NCBI RefSeq assembly: GCF_030553075.1
Contig: NZ_CP130701.1
Coordinates: forward strand, 2,294,001 to 2,358,000
Length of the DNA stretch: 64,000 nt
Reading direction: 5' to 3'
From: Halomonas sp. I5-271120
Lineage (GTDB): Bacteria > Pseudomonadota > Gammaproteobacteria > Pseudomonadales > Halomonadaceae
The stretch's first letter is position 1. Every line of letters starts with the position of its first letter. The notes under the pieces are model-generated. The model saw only the letters and a program-made list of their open reading frames with translations. It did no database searches and was not told the origin of the DNA. Below are positions 7,925 to 64,000 of the stretch, one piece after another. The position numbers and the translations under genes were made by a program.

Positions 7925-10293
7925 GCGAGTTTTCCGCGCCTGTCCTGCTGGCCGACGGTGAGAGCCTCTCTGCGGCCATGCTGCGTCGGCTGTTCATCGG
8001 TCAGTGTCTGGTGCTTGGCATGCATCTGGCGTTCATGCCGCTGTGGCTGCTGGCGGTGGCCGCGCTGGTGGCTTGGCGTCGTCATCGCCAGCTCATTAAA
8101 CGTGCGCCCCGGGCCGGCGTGGCCCTGCGCCTGGTCTCGATTGCGGCGCTGCTGGGTGCGCTGTGGGTCCAATACGGTGGCTTTGGCGATCTCGAGGCGC
8201 TGCTCGGGATGCTGATCGGCATCTACCTGCTGAAGCTTCTGGAGGCTCGCACCCGGCGCGACGCGCGGGTGGTGGTCGGTATCGGCTTCGTGGCCCTGGC
8301 GGCGAGCTTCCTGCATGACCAGAGCATCGTGATGGCGCTGGGCGCGGTGGTGGCGGCGACCTGGCTGGTGCAATCGCTGGTCGCGCTGTCGGGAGGTTCG
8401 CAGGCCCACGCCAATCGCGTCGCCTGGCGTGAGACCGCCTGGCTGGTGGGCCTGTCGGCGCCGCTGATGGTGGCGCTGTTTATTGTCATGCCGCGGTTCG
8501 GGCCGCTATGGAGTCTGCCGACACTTGAGCGTGCCTCGACGGGGCTCACCGACAGCATGGCGCCCGGCGAGATTGCGAGGCTGTCACGAAGCGATGCGAG
8601 GGCCTTTCGTGTCAGCTTCGAGGGCCCGGTGCCGCCGCCAGCCAAGCGCTACTGGCGGGTCTATACCCTGACGCACTTCGACGGTGAGCGCTGGTCGCGG
8701 GAGACGCCGGAGGCACTGGCGACGACCCTCGAGCGACCGCTCAGCGACTTCGCCAGGACCTCGCGGCGCAATCCCTTTGCGGCAGATACGGCCACGAGGG
8801 CGGCCTCTGGCCTATCCGGCGACGTATCCAGTTCCCGCTCGAACACCAGTTCGAACTCAGGCTCGAACTCAGGAGCGAGCTCAGGCGACATTCCGCGCTC
8901 GCCACACTATCGCACGGAATTCCTGCTGGAGCCGGACAGCCGCCCCTGGCGTCCAGCGCTGGGAACGCCGCTTGCAAGCCCGGAACGACAGCGCTTTCTC
9001 GGCGATGGCACCCTCGAGGGGCTGACGGCGCTTTCCTCACGCGGCCTGGTCACCCTCGAAAGCAGCGGCCAGGCGCCGGCCTTCTCAGACCCGGCGGGAC
9101 GTGCCTGGCATACGCTGCTGCCCCGAGGGCGCAACCCTCGCACCCTGGCGCTGGCCAAGCGGCTGTGGCGGGGCGCCGAGGGCGATCCGCAGGCCTATCT
9201 GGCCGCCGTGATGGCGCGCTTCGGCGAGGCGCCATATCGCTATACCCTGGAGCCGCCGCGGCTCACGGGTGAGCACCGCGTCGATGCCTTCCTGTTCGAT
9301 AGCCAGGCCGGCTACTGCTCTCATTACGCCTCGGCTACCGCCGTGCTGGCGCGGGCGGTGGGCATCCCGGCGCGAGTGGTGGCCGGCTTTCAGGGCGGCG
9401 AGCGCCACCCGGATGGCCACCTGACGGTGCGTGATTACGACGCCCACGCCTGGGTCGAGGTCTGGCGCGACGGGGCCTGGCATCGGCTGGATCCCACATC
9501 GGTGATCGCGCCCGAGCGCATCGAGCAAGGCACCGCCGCCCTGACGGCCGGGAGCGAGGCCTTCCTGGCCGATGCCGGCCTGTCGCCGCTGCGCTTTCGC
9601 GATGTCGCCTGGCTGAACCGTGCAAGGCTTGCCTGGGAGCGGCTCGAGTATCGCTGGCAGCGACAGGTCGTGGGCTATGAGAGTCGTGATCGTGAGGCAC
9701 TGCTGACGCGCTTGCTGCAGGTGCTGGAGACACCTTGGCAGGCGCTCAATACGCTCAAGGAGCGTGCGTTGTCACTGATGTCGAACGGCGGCTTCGGTGC
9801 CCTGCGCATGGGCGCTGAGATACTGGGCGTGCTGATGCTCGCGGCGCTGTTCGGCTTCGGCCTGAAGGAGGGAGTCCGACGCTGGCGCCGACCGTCGACG
9901 CTACGCGAACTGCTGCTTGCCGACGCGGCCTGGCTTGCGCGTCATGGCTATCCGGCACGGCCCGGGGAATCGCCATCGGCGCACTTGCGTCGCCTGGCGG
10001 CAGCGTGGCCATGCGGAGGGTCGTCATGTGATGAGCCGGGCTTGGCCGGCGGGCGGGTGCCTGATGTGCTGAAGCATCAGCGAGACCTCGCGGCGGCCAG
10101 CCAAGCCCTGGCCGAGGCCATCGAGCGGCTCTATTACGCGCCTCTCGACGAAAGCGAGCGACGCCGCTGGCGGCAGTACTTCCATGCGCGGCGCCGACAC
10201 TGGCGAGGCGTTTTTCGCCGTGTGAGCCGATGTCGCTCGGGAGATGCCGGCAGGCTGGCGCGTTGGCGACAGACATGGCATCTTGGACGCTAA
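7921..10293 (+). CDS. tgpA: TgpA-like transmembrane transglutaminase protein (DUF3488/transglutaminase/DUF4129)
   Basis: Encodes 790 residues. The first about 200 residues hold several membrane helices (DUF3488), followed by a periplasmic transglutaminase core with the catalytic triad Cys466 (GYCSHYASA), His509 (DAHAWVEVW) and Asp524 (RLDPTS). A further membrane helix lies near 630-645 and the C-terminal DUF4129-like tail is cytosolic. P. aeruginosa TgpA, of the same layout, is essential there. A Ser/Asn-rich insertion at residues 301-323 looks like a flexible linker. It overlaps the DUF58 gene by 4 bases and closes the operon. Confidence 0.9.
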   Translation: MSEFSAPVLLADGESLSAAMLRRLFIGQCLVLGMHLAFMPLWLLAVAALVAWRRHRQLIKRAPRAGVALRLVSIAALLGALWVQYGGFGDLEALLGMLIGIYLLKLLEARTRRDARVVVGIGFVALAASFLHDQSIVMALGAVVAATWLVQSLVALSGGSQAHANRVAWRETAWLVGLSAPLMVALFIVMPRFGPLWSLPTLERASTGLTDSMAPGEIARLSRSDARAFRVSFEGPVPPPAKRYWRVYTLTHFDGERWSRETPEALATTLERPLSDFARTSRRNPFAADTATRAASGLSGDVSSSRSNTSSNSGSNSGASSGDIPRSPHYRTEFLLEPDSRPWRPALGTPLASPERQRFLGDGTLEGLTALSSRGLVTLESSGQAPAFSDPAGRAWHTLLPRGRNPRTLALAKRLWRGAEGDPQAYLAAVMARFGEAPYRYTLEPPRLTGEHRVDAFLFDSQAGYCSHYASATAVLARAVGIPARVVAGFQGGERHPDGHLTVRDYDAHAWVEVWRDGAWHRLDPTSVIAPERIEQGTAALTAGSEAFLADAGLSPLRFRDVAWLNRARLAWERLEYRWQRQVVGYESRDREALLTRLLQVLETPWQALNTLKERALSLMSNGGFGALRMGAEILGVLMLAALFGFGLKEGVRRWRRPSTLRELLLADAAWLARHGYPARPGESPSAHLRRLAAAWPCGGSSCDEPGLAGGRVPDVLKHQRDLAAASQALAEAIERLYYAPLDESERRRWRQYFHARRRHWRGVFRRVSRCRSGDAGRLARWRQTWHLGR

Positions 10294-61749: not shown

Positions 61750-62832
61750 ATGCGGTCTAGGTCATCTAGGTATGAAGCCTATCATCCAATGCAGAGCCGG
61801 GTGCGCTGGGCTCTGCTATGGCTGCTGTGCTGTCTGGTTGTGGGATGTGCTACTACCTATCCGCTTTCACAGCAGGATATTGCGGCCGAGATTCGCGCAC
61901 GCTATGACACTGCCTTCGACACACTTCCCGTCGCCAACCAGCGCCATTATGCCCAGCGGCTTTATCGTCTTACCGGCGACGACCGGTACTTGCCTCCACT
62001 GCAGGACTACGGCACGCGACTCGTGGCATCTTTGCAAAAGGATATAACCGGCTTGGCCCAGCCGGGTTATGCCGCTCATCGAGCCGCCGGGATGCTAGAA
62101 CGCTATCCTGAACGCACGGGCAAGCAACGCAGACGCAAGCAGATGCTGGGGGAGTGGGGCGAAATGATCTTCGCTAAAACCCTCGCCTTTCGGCTTAATC
62201 AGGCGCGCTTCCATGGCCTGTTGAATGACAAGCAGCTGCCGGAAATCGGTAGGGTGATGGCGTATCTCGAAGACCAGCCGTATCGCGACTTCCTGACGTC
62301 TCCCGAAGTACTCGAGGTCTATGCCGCCCAGGTCGCAAACCTGACCTATGATCTCTATGGGCTGGGGCTAGCTGATCTACGCCATGAGGTCCAGGCGGCC
62401 TTTCGTGATCACTACCCACCGGCCCGCGATGCAGCGCTGTCGCAAGCGTCCTTTCGCAACAAGATCTATGGCATGACGCACTTCGTGATTGCCGCCAGTG
62501 ACTATTATCAGCATCCCGTGTCGGCCGCAGACAACGCCTGGATCCTCGAGGCTTTCGATGCTCAGATCGAGCGTATCCTGGCCGAGACCAAGGAAGACAT
62601 CTACACCGAAGTCGGTATCAGCTTTCAGCTGGCAGGGCTGACCGATCACCCGGTCGTCTCGCATACTCAGCAGGCACTGATAAGGGCCTATGACCCAGAG
62701 GCAAGAATGATCCCCGGGGAGTTCGGCAGCACTGATCTGGCACGGGGCGAGCACCGCAATGTGCTGGCCATCATGCTGCTGGATTGGCCCGAGAGGCTCT
62801 ATCCGGGGCCTATGCTTTTGATAGAAAAATAA
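61750..62832 (+). CDS. lipoprotein, resembling DUF3541
   Basis: Encodes 360 residues with a signal peptide and a lipobox-like LVVGC. The mature part is helical (LRHEVQAAF, YGMTHFVIAASDYYQHPVSAADNAW) and resembles DUF3541 proteins of unknown function. GGAGGG precedes ATG 61750; ATG 61789 would give a shorter signal. It is the last gene of normal base composition before the AT-rich segment. Confidence 0.6.
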   Translation: MRSRSSRYEAYHPMQSRVRWALLWLLCCLVVGCATTYPLSQQDIAAEIRARYDTAFDTLPVANQRHYAQRLYRLTGDDRYLPPLQDYGTRLVASLQKDITGLAQPGYAAHRAAGMLERYPERTGKQRRRKQMLGEWGEMIFAKTLAFRLNQARFHGLLNDKQLPEIGRVMAYLEDQPYRDFLTSPEVLEVYAAQVANLTYDLYGLGLADLRHEVQAAFRDHYPPARDAALSQASFRNKIYGMTHFVIAASDYYQHPVSAADNAWILEAFDAQIERILAETKEDIYTEVGISFQLAGLTDHPVVSHTQQALIRAYDPEARMIPGEFGSTDLARGEHRNVLAIMLLDWPERLYPGPMLLIEK

Positions 62833-62852
62833 GCTTCTTAGGATGACTCATT

Positions 62853-63653
62853 TTAAAGTTTCTGACTGACCGAGATGTGTTCGGCAGGAAGTTTTTCCTT
62901 AATCTGGTTTCTAATGTGTAGGTAGAGAGGGTTAAGCTCTTTCTTGAATTCATTTTTTGCACTTTCGTAGTTTATGTAGAAAGCACCTCTAGTTCCAAAG
63001 TATTCGAATATATCTGTTACCCTTGTAAAATAAAACCCTGAAAATGATAGGGCTCTAGGTAAGTTAGGTTGCATTAATGCAAAGACATGTGGTCTTCCTG
63101 TTAGTCCGACTAAGGCGAAGGTTGCAAGGAAGAGGCTGATCATGATTATTGGAAACAATTCAGACTCTTCGTCTTGGAATTTAAAGTTTTTTGAGCTTTC
63201 AGTTTCTTGGTTTTTGTTCTTCCGGAAAATCTTAGGGATTGCGAACCTTGATACTTCGCACACCTCATTATTAGGAAAGTTTCTTGGGTGAGAGTTGGGG
63301 TGATTAAAAAGTGGTGTGCAAACATCCTCTAGAGGTAGTGATAAATTATCCGAATCACCCTTCACGGGTTTAACTAGCCTCATGCACCCTGCTATCATTC
63401 CAGTTCTTTTATGCGTAATAAAGCAGTGTATAGATGAGTTGTCAAAGCGATCGTATTCAAATTGTTTATCTTTGTCAGCATTAAGCTTGTATTCAAGTTC
63501 TTCGATGAATATTTCATGCCTTAGCCTTCGGAGATTTTCCTCCTCCTTTTGTGTGCTGGCGATGTTGACTTGGAAATACTTGTCGAATAAATAGGCGTTT
63601 CTTCTAGCCGTATATTTTTTTTTGCTTGTCTCTAATTTTTCTTTAGTTTCCAT
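62853..63653 (-). CDS. PEP-CTERM/exosortase-associated acyltransferase
   Basis: A 266-residue protein related to LuxI-like autoinducer synthases (family TIGR03694 as I recall). Visible family marks: a RLRHEIFIEELEYKL segment, EYDRFDNSSIHCF, GCMRLVKPVKG, LPLEDVC and EVSRFAIPKIFRKN, plus the hydrophobic FPIIMISLFLATFALVG. These enzymes occur with exosortases and exopolysaccharide genes, but none is in the window. The gene is much richer in AT than its left neighbours, with Lys/Asn/Phe-rich codons, a sign of transfer. It follows the EAL gene by 15 bp. Confidence 0.78.
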   Translation of the reverse strand: METKEKLETSKKKYTARRNAYLFDKYFQVNIASTQKEEENLRRLRHEIFIEELEYKLNADKDKQFEYDRFDNSSIHCFITHKRTGMIAGCMRLVKPVKGDSDNLSLPLEDVCTPLFNHPNSHPRNFPNNEVCEVSRFAIPKIFRKNKNQETESSKNFKFQDEESELFPIIMISLFLATFALVGLTGRPHVFALMQPNLPRALSFSGFYFTRVTDIFEYFGTRGAFYINYESAKNEFKKELNPLYLHIRNQIKEKLPAEHISVSQKL

Positions 63654-63668
63654 GGGCTTTATTTTCGT

Positions 63669-64000
63669 TCAGGTTGTTTGTTTTCTAAATAGTATTTTTT
63701 TGGCAAGCTCTGGTTTTCCGATATGGAATCCTTGGCCATATTTTATCCCATAACTCTGTAAAGCAATGATGGTTTCTTCGTCTTCGATGAATTCTGCAAT
63801 GGCTTGTTTCCCAAGCCCAGTGGATATATCTGATATGGCTTTTACGATAACTTTGCTATTATTGTTTGAGCATATTTCTCGGATAAATGACCCGTCTATT
63901 TTTATATAGTCAATCGGAAGTTTCTCTAAGTAGTGAAAGCTGCTAAAGCCAACTCCGAAGTCATCAAGTGCAGTTTTGCAGCCTATGTTGCGTAAGGATT
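63669..64000 (-). CDS. EAL-domain cyclic-di-GMP phosphodiesterase, C-terminal part
   Basis: The last 109 codons are in the window (coding 63998-63672, stop 63671-63669); the start is beyond the edge. It contains the EAL-domain blocks LDDFGVGFSSF, IDYIKIDGSFI, AEFIEDEET and YGQGFHIGKPE. The conserved DDFG and KIDG motifs suggest an active hydrolase if the missing part is normal. Same AT-rich composition as the acyltransferase behind it, so both probably form one operon of a transferred island. Confidence 0.9.
   Translation of the reverse strand, partial: SLRNIGCKTALDDFGVGFSSFHYLEKLPIDYIKIDGSFIREICSNNNSKVIVKAISDISTGLGKQAIAEFIEDEETIIALQSYGIKYGQGFHIGKPELAKKILFRKQTT

What the first reader, a model, noticed from the sequence alone, without database searches (positions are those of the whole stretch)
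62840..64000. AT-rich island edge pairing an EAL protein with an exosortase-type acyltransferase
At about 62.85 kb the DNA changes from GC-rich to clearly AT-rich and stays so to the window end. In it an EAL-domain gene runs 15 bp ahead of a LuxI-like acyltransferase of the PEP-CTERM/exosortase type, with no exosortase in view. Coupling of c-di-GMP turnover to a sorting- or polymer-associated acyltransferase in one operon is unusual to me and may open a larger transferred surface-polymer system beyond the window. Composition and gene order are seen; the island is inferred.
Basis: partly seen in the sequence, partly recalled or inferred. Interest (0 to 1): 0.72.

Follow-up and report, generated by a model that had tools for sequence, protein, structure and literature searches.

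The report
Matched acyltransferase and porin signalling operon
The end of this window holds part of a four-gene bacterial sensing operon in which a LuxI-like enzyme and one half of an outer-membrane channel are exchanged together between species, as if the enzyme's unknown product had to fit the channel.

Summary
62853-63653(-) is a TIGR03694 acyltransferase, 15 bp behind a 943-aa dCache_3-PAS-GGDEF-EAL protein cut by the window. Next come a 16-strand porin and a PstS-like protein. The four genes keep this order in all 79 loci examined, of 165 (of 275) family genomes carrying the acyltransferase. No family genome has an exosortase over cut-off (0 of 275); 31 of 31 other sampled order genomes with TIGR03694 do. 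The low GC belongs to the gene, not to an island. New: the acyltransferase and porin residues ~170-340 behave as one haplotype. Species 90-98% identical across most of the operon can carry unrelated acyltransferases (~50% DNA identity) together with unrelated porin middles, while the 2.8-kb sensor gene between them stays; the reverse also occurs. The four genes recur in two other arrangements outside the order, apparently with separately recruited acyltransferases, and with one similar co-change. Best guess: a self-made N-acyl signal or surface lipid is matched to the porin's outer face and read out as c-di-GMP. The pairing is shown by sequence; product and mechanism are inferred.

The parts
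62853..63653 (-). TIGR03694 acyltransferase (LuxI/FeeM-like fold), 266 aa, fourth gene of the operon; the exchanged cassette
   Evidence: TIGR03694 166.7 bits vs cut-off 111.95; Acetyltransf_5 and Autoind_synth over cut-off; AlphaFold pLDDT 93.3, nearest folds AHL synthases and FeeM; R45 E66 D68 R92 E133 S135 R136 invariant in 64 of 64 aligned
63654..63668 (-). 15-bp gap between the EAL gene stop and the acyltransferase start
   Evidence: ORF coordinates
63669..64000 (-). C-terminal part of the EAL domain of the 943-aa dCache_3-PAS-GGDEF-EAL protein. The rest of the operon lies outside the window: whole sensor gene L002:2669-5500(-), porin L002:5553-6773(-), PstS-like gene L002:6742-7203(-); L002 position 1 = window 61001
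   Evidence: Pfam EAL 224.9, GGDEF 139.4, dCache_3 67.8 bits on the whole protein; nine EAL catalytic positions kept in 76 of 76, GGDEF in 75 of 76 (which residues are catalytic is recalled). Porin: AlphaFold pLDDT 79.6, 16 strands, best Foldseek E-value DcaP 6eus, co-variation. PstS-like: profile matches PstS1 4exl E 0.0016; weak PBP_like_2 in two homologues, none in the own protein
61750..62832 (+). Neighbour, not part of the operon: convergent DUF3541 protein (360 aa) that borders the exchanged cassette
   Evidence: PF12060 260.8 bits; same place downstream in 14 of 41 loci, all 6 of the own genus

Best explanation
A four-gene sensory operon: PstS-like protein > porin > dCache_3-PAS-GGDEF-EAL sensor > TIGR03694 acyltransferase. 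The first three form a VpvABC-like trio, a surface channel and binding protein feeding a membrane c-di-GMP enzyme. The fourth is a LuxI/FeeM-fold acyltransferase recruited from the exosortase-linked family. SHOWN (sequence): operon conservation; catalytic-type residues kept in both enzymes; absence of exosortase; acyltransferase allele and porin residues ~170-340 (strands 6-13, loops L4-L7) exchanged together across the constant sensor gene; the same four genes united in other arrangements elsewhere. INFERRED: the acyltransferase joins a fatty acyl group to an amino acid or similar small molecule; the product reaches the outer membrane or the outside; the matching half of the porin binds or admits that product; the PstS-like protein and dCache domain, which hardly co-vary with the enzyme, report it; the GGDEF-EAL output shifts c-di-GMP. 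It would be a private, self-matched signalling (or self-surface) circuit whose specificity lies in the porin rather than in the sensor.
For: Order: 41 of 41 loci and 38 of the 38 ACYL-positive loci among 40 more (L130, L131, L159 with broken or partial genes): 79 examined of 165 positive genomes. All 165 have the PstS-like gene by my reading of both lists (174 positives, 9 without ACYL). Coupling on 76 loci: distance correlation ACYL-porin 0.78 against 0.58-0.63 for every other part; partial r 0.61, others between -0.17 and 0.10; within genus g23 partial 0.91, g8 0.68. Trees: ACYL and porin share 41 of 73 splits, ACYL and sensor 28. Close pairs (core <0.30, n=278): both swapped 184, neither 79, only one 15; 0 of 5000 within-cluster permutations reach the observed r. 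Sharp cassette edges. Reverse cases L136/L137, L043/L135. Elsewhere in the class: 7 of 21 inspected porin loci have ACYL beside the trio, in two other arrangements, in separate ACYL clades, with a co-change in L4/L5 (one event). AHL-synthase/FeeM fold.
Against: The presumed sensors hardly co-vary with the enzyme: PstS-like partial r -0.17, dCache 0.05 (for dCache 8 of 300 restricted permutations reach the observed value, so a weak link is possible). The porin as a whole correlates about as well or better with the core (0.77-0.88) as with the enzyme, because its ends follow the core. Co-varying differences are strongest in extracellular loops and, by a crude assignment, the outer face rather than the pore lining, which also fits surface selection by phages. 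15 of 278 close pairs are discordant, e.g. L043/L140. In small genera the pattern is less specific: in g1 the EAL parts also correlate (0.82-0.83), in g10 all parts do. Two genomes keep the trio without EAL and acyltransferase, so the trio can exist without it. Product, regulation and output are unknown.
Confidence: 0.45

Rival explanations
1. Surface-lipid or biosurfactant output: the acyltransferase makes an N-acyl amino acid lipid that is placed in or released through the outer membrane; the porin co-adapts because the lipid packs against its outer face or leaves through it. The c-di-GMP enzyme controls when this is done, and there is no self-signal.
For: TIGR03694 and the FeeM fold point to N-acyl amino acids; outer-face and loop positions of the porin differ most between swapped pairs (crude facing); the PstS-like and sensor parts hardly co-vary with the enzyme.
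Against: Does not explain why the enzyme is found beside a sensing trio in three arrangements, nor why allele diversity is so high among near-identical operons.
Confidence: 0.25
2. Surface arms race: the porin middle varies because phages or bacteriocins bind it, and the acyltransferase varies because its product alters or shields the same surface; co-inheritance reflects protective combinations.
For: Loops L4-L6 differ most; very high diversity among near-identical operons.
Against: Loops L1, L2 and L8 show little of the effect; homologous porins outside the family without the acyltransferase show a smaller excess in this part (variable minus constant distance -0.05 to +0.12 in 6 pairs, against roughly +0.15 to +0.2 in the family at similar distance), although they too should meet phages (assumption).
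Confidence: 0.15
3. No functional match: mosaic import by transformation brings several fragments from one donor, and the two hypervariable places are merely where imports show.
For: The segments look recombinational, and multi-fragment imports from one donor are known (recalled).
Against: The sensor gene between the cassettes and the ends of the porin stay with the recipient; 263 of 278 close pairs are concordant; a similar co-change occurs outside the order with another gene arrangement (one event in four genomes).
Confidence: 0.1
4. One reading: the edge of a transferred island carrying an exosortase/surface-polymer system.
For: Sharp GC change and a TIGR03694 hit.
Against: No exosortase in the genome or over the cut-off in 275 family genomes; operon conserved in the family; no tRNA nearby; no polymer genes recognised by eye to ~81 kb.
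Confidence: 0.02

Closest known systems
VpvABC system of Vibrio cholerae (PMC12456836: abstract, passages and section 14; PMC8754643: passages)
   Same: One operon with a porin, a periplasmic binding protein and a membrane diguanylate cyclase; predicted three-component signal sensing.
   Different: Here gene order is binding protein, porin, sensor; the enzyme is GGDEF-EAL; a fourth gene, the acyltransferase, is added and is co-inherited with half of the porin. No acyltransferase is mentioned in the passages read; a search for vpvABC + acyltransferase found no paper. Orthology by sequence was not tested.
TIGR03694 PEP-CTERM/exosortase-associated acyltransferases / N-acyl amino acid synthases (FeeM and relatives; Craig et al. 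2011, not held, cited in PMC7293339 and PMC11631085, passages)
   Same: Family model over cut-off and FeeM-like fold.
   Different: No exosortase over cut-off in the family; sits in a c-di-GMP operon instead.
LuxI-type AHL synthases (BjaI, LasI, TofI)
   Same: Fold and catalytic-type residues (residue roles recalled).
   Different: Best AHL-synthase equivalog score 20.9 against a cut-off of 250; no LuxR-type gene among the four; periplasmic sensor architecture.
FadL-mediated uptake of long-chain AHLs in Sinorhizobium (PMC9938287: abstract and passages)
   Same: An outer-membrane channel that handles a long-chain acyl signal.
   Different: FadL belongs to another channel family (recalled) and no co-inheritance with a synthase was mentioned in the passages read; here a porin half is co-inherited with the enzyme, and the barrel is 16-stranded and DcaP-like.

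Membership tests
TIGR03694 acyltransferase family | score above the curated cut-off | tested here: met
   166.7 vs 111.95 bits; six further alleles and lineages 159-207 bits, 6 of 6 over cut-off
PEP-CTERM/exosortase system | exosortase (PF09721) in the genome | tested here: not met
   0 of 1 own genome; 0 of 275 family genomes over cut-off, one sub-threshold fragment; 31 of 31 out-of-family order genomes with TIGR03694 over cut-off are positive
PEP-CTERM/exosortase system | PEP-CTERM target proteins | not tested
   no search made
VpvABC-like module | porin + periplasmic binding protein + GGDEF enzyme in one operon | tested here: met
   binding-protein assignment rests on E 0.0016; co-transcription itself not tested
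VpvABC-like module | sequence orthology with VpvA, VpvB, VpvC | not tested
   V. cholerae sequences were not fetched
AHL synthase (LuxI) | LuxI/GNAT fold with acid and Arg residues | tested here: met
AHL synthase (LuxI) | equivalog-level score to a known AHL synthase | tested here: not met
   20.9 vs 250 and 18.7 vs 292 bits
N-acyl amino acid synthase (FeeM) | FeeM-like fold | tested here: met
   2g0b_D E 1.9e-7, TMt 0.68
N-acyl amino acid synthase (FeeM) | makes N-acyl amino acids | not testable with these tools
   needs LC-MS of extracts
Genomic island | tRNA junction, or locus absent from relatives | tested here: not met
   no tRNA in 60 kb; same operon in all 79 examined family loci with the gene, although 110 of 275 family genomes lack it; integrase not searched

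The most novel reading that the evidence does not exclude
A previously undescribed class of self-recognition signalling: a LuxI-fold synthase paired with a polymorphic porin half as its specificity-determining surface receptor or gate, read out directly as c-di-GMP by a conserved periplasmic sensor, with matched haplotypes exchanged between species (pherotype-like) and apparently assembled more than once.
Probability: 0.35. Interest if true: 0.92.

Novelty: new variant of a known kind. Interest (0 to 1): 0.8.

Why it matters
It gives the exosortase-linked acyltransferase family a second, exosortase-free setting and adds a candidate ligand source to VpvABC-like c-di-GMP modules, whose signal is described as unknown (PMC12456836, passages). 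A non-adjacent enzyme-porin haplotype that swaps around a constant sensor is unusual. It makes a question directly testable: does a porin decide which acyl signal a bacterium hears, or which surface lipid it displays?

Tried and rejected
Island with tRNA junction: no tRNA; an IS30 element lies beyond the operon. Exosortase missed in view: genome and family searched. Low GC as proof of foreign origin: the gene is lower in GC than its locus in 38 of 41 relatives examined. Direct sensor-enzyme co-specificity (dCache or PstS-like as receptor): partial correlations 0.05 and -0.17, with a weak dCache excess in permutation (8 of 300). Pore lining as the matched surface: loops and outer face differ more, but facing was guessed from hydrophobicity parity (ambiguous in several strands) and the segment moves as a block, so no site-level claim is made. 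Generic porin loop hypervariability: out-of-family porins without the acyltransferase show a smaller excess (6 pairs only). The ACYL clade of the family holds 77 of 77 without outsiders; its support reads 0.985 in the unrooted tree and 0.69 after re-rooting in the script, so I treat it as moderately supported. The second clade (6 sequences, 0.999) is firm, but the smallest split holding both clades includes 23 outsiders and has support of only 0.46. Literature: no paper in this library with N-acyl amino acid + c-di-GMP + porin, N-acyl amino acid + diguanylate cyclase, exosortase + acyltransferase + diguanylate cyclase + operon, the NCBI family name, or vpvABC + acyltransferase; most subscription papers are missing. 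A Halomonas c-di-GMP paper (PMC12421958, passages) does not concern this operon as far as the passages show.

Rows dropped: the co-variation set used 76 of 81 family loci; L044, L128, L129, L130 and L159 were left out for missing or broken genes. L131, whose acyltransferase is split over two frames, stayed in with its larger fragment only. ACYL conservation used the 64 loci with a score of 150 or more and a clear start, one of them that fragment.

Full report
OBSERVATION. GC falls to 0.38-0.40 at ~62.85 kb. The 266-aa ORF at 62853-63653(-) hits TIGR03694 with 166.7 bits (cut-off 111.95), 15 bp after a gene with an EAL domain. The window is G000:C1:2294001-2358000; a named record 99% identical over the acyltransferase is Onishia taeanensis. 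Beyond the window (L002, where position 1 = window 61001) the EAL gene is a 943-aa dCache_3-PAS-GGDEF-EAL protein, followed on the same strand by a 406-aa porin and a 153-aa PstS-like protein, then an IS30-type transposase. In window-equivalent coordinates the porin is 66553-67773(-) and the PstS-like gene 67742-68203(-). Genes further on were only read by eye in the ORF list. GC rises gradually back to the host level. There is no tRNA in 60 kb.

NOT AN ISLAND, NOT AN EXOSORTASE SYSTEM. The acyltransferase is in 165 of 275 family genomes, mostly as a single copy. By my reading of the two lists, all 165 also have the PstS-like gene (174 positives; the nine PstS-only genomes are five weak matches, two incomplete genomes, and G221 and G242). 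I examined the neighbourhood of 79 of the 165: own, 40 chosen across genera and 38 more. In all 79 the order is PstS-like > porin > sensor > acyltransferase on one strand; a few copies have broken or partial genes (L130, L131, L159, and the porin of L044). G221 and G242, fetched because they lack the acyltransferase, keep the trio, but their third gene is GGDEF without EAL (Pfam on the G242 copy: dCache_3-PAS-GGDEF): EAL and acyltransferase are absent together. Exosortase PF09721 is over cut-off in 0 of 275 family genomes, but in 31 of 31 out-of-family genomes with TIGR03694 over cut-off in a sample of 390 from the order. From those 31 I opened 20 loci in 16 genomes; none has the trio within about 9 kb. 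Conversely, porin homologues occur in 32 out-of-family genomes of a sample of 381; of these I opened 20 loci in 18 genomes: all 20 have the PstS-like gene upstream, 19 have a third gene matching the sensor or cyclase profile, and 0 have the acyltransferase. So the family joined two things that are separate in the loci seen elsewhere in the order.

THE COUPLED CASSETTES. Distances over 76 loci show that the acyltransferase follows the porin (r 0.78) more than anything else in the operon (0.58-0.63). The partial correlation with the porin is 0.61; all others lie between -0.17 and 0.10. The porin itself correlates with the core at 0.77-0.88, because only its middle follows the acyltransferase. 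It holds inside the two large genera: g23 (27 loci) raw 0.90, partial 0.91; g8 (24 loci) raw 0.72, partial 0.68. In small genera it is less specific: in g1 (6 loci) raw r is 0.85 with the porin but also 0.82-0.83 with the two EAL parts; in g20 (6 loci) 0.94 against 0.75-0.87 for the sensor parts; in g10 (5 loci) all parts correlate equally. Genus-restricted permutations do not reach the observed porin value (0 of 300); for dCache, partial r is 0.05 and 8 of 300 reach it. Gene trees agree: acyltransferase and porin share 41 of 73 splits, PstS-like and sensor 34, and the cross pairs 21-28; at support 0.95 or more, acyltransferase-porin conflicts number 3 of 35 against 15 of 35 for acyltransferase-sensor. 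The linkage groups thus alternate along the operon (genes 1+3, genes 2+4). DNA windows show it directly: L152 against L074 is 0.84-0.98 identical nearly throughout, except a porin segment (0.57) and the acyltransferase (0.50); in L152/L074 and L151/L167 the fitted edges lie near porin residues 152-170 and 343-349 and ~50-75 bp outside the acyltransferase ORF. The reverse occurs in L136/L137 and L043/L135: the porin's later part and the acyltransferase are 0.84-0.99 alike, while the PstS-like and sensor genes are mostly 0.5-0.8 (L136/L137) or 0.5-0.9 (L043/L135), though the upstream flank is again 0.8-0.9. Among 278 pairs with core distance under 0.30, both are swapped in 184, neither in 79, only the acyltransferase in 8, only the porin in 7; in one cluster of eight species the four acyltransferase types and four porin types have identical membership. 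Within-cluster permutation: 0 of 5000 at either threshold (observed r 0.95 and 0.90; permutation means 0.57 and 0.22). In the other larger close cluster (five g8 species) the match is incomplete: L043 and L140 share the porin type but not the acyltransferase. Window analysis places the coupled part at porin residues ~170-330; residues before ~155 and after ~337 follow the core.

STRUCTURE. The porin model (pLDDT 79.6) has 16 strands; the coupled part is strands 6-13 with loops L4-L7; the conserved loop 135-169 is L3 (loop numbering is mine). The best Foldseek match is DcaP, with other 16-strand porins close behind. Between swapped pairs L4, L5 and L6 differ at 61-86% of positions (12-29% in unswapped pairs), L3 at 4%. 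Homologous porins without the acyltransferase show a smaller excess in this part (6 pairs). The acyltransferase model (pLDDT 93.3) matches AHL synthases and FeeM in its first 16 rows. Its acid and arginine residues are invariant in 64 of 64, except D71 at 0.98. Nine EAL catalytic positions (recalled) are kept in 76 of 76, and GGDEF in 75 of 76.

INDEPENDENT RECURRENCE. Of 36 class genomes outside the family with an acyltransferase match (38 of 321 in all), I opened 20 loci in 19 genomes; one carries the trio: L189, outside the order. Among 46 genomes (G893 and relatives), 20 have the porin, at 24 places. Of 21 places inspected (20 plus L189), 7 have the acyltransferase beside the trio: six as PstS-like>porin> <sensor<acyltransferase, and one (L219) as acyltransferase>PstS-like>porin>sensor; one locus (L211) is cut by its contig end. 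The three of these acyltransferases that I tested (L189, L209, L219) are TIGR03694 over cut-off. In the tree they lie apart from the family clade (6 sequences at 0.999; L219 elsewhere), though the deep split is weak (0.46). Inside one genus there, L189/L208 and L209/L210 carry different acyltransferases (0.54-0.58 between, 0.90 within) on 0.92-0.99 identical cores; the porin differs mainly at residues 186-215 and 246-275, which hold L4 and L5. That is one event in four genomes.

MECHANISM. Best-supported: the enzyme's product must fit the outer half of the porin. Whether it is a signal read by the sensor (favoured because of the repeated union with a c-di-GMP sensing trio), a surface lipid, or a shield is not decided. 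That the PstS-like and dCache parts hardly co-vary argues that specificity lies in the porin. [quoted passage not shown] section 14). That TIGR03694 members make N-acyl amino acids is recalled from Craig et al. 2011 (not held; cited in PMC7293339 and PMC11631085, passages).

LIMITS. One genome per species, unnamed; distances are simple; close clusters are few, so the number of independent exchanges (perhaps six to ten by my reading) is not a formal count. Sequence orthology with VpvABC was not tested; co-transcription was not tested.

Noticed in passing
L002:7607-8626 (window-equivalent 68607-69626): IS30-family transposase just upstream of the operon's first gene, divergent from it (NF033563).
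   Followed up: no
L128, L129 (G221, G242): Two genomes keep the trio but lack both the EAL domain and the acyltransferase.
   Followed up: partly
L131 (G219) and L130 (G190): The acyltransferase is split over two frames in one genome and partial in the other, with a partial porin match too: apparent decay of the coupled genes.
   Followed up: no
L108 (G365), oriented 8217-9071: An ORF matching the GGDEF-EAL profile sits directly upstream of an exosortase-type TIGR03694 gene in another family.
   Followed up: no
L122, L123, L191, L194, L195: Pairs of TIGR03694-like genes on opposite strands side by side.
   Followed up: no
L003:17001-20000: Another AT-rich stretch (GC down to 0.41), window-equivalent about 98-101 kb.
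   Followed up: no
window 61750-62832: DUF3541 protein beside the operon: convergent downstream in 14 of 41 loci and upstream in 4; function unknown.
   Followed up: partly
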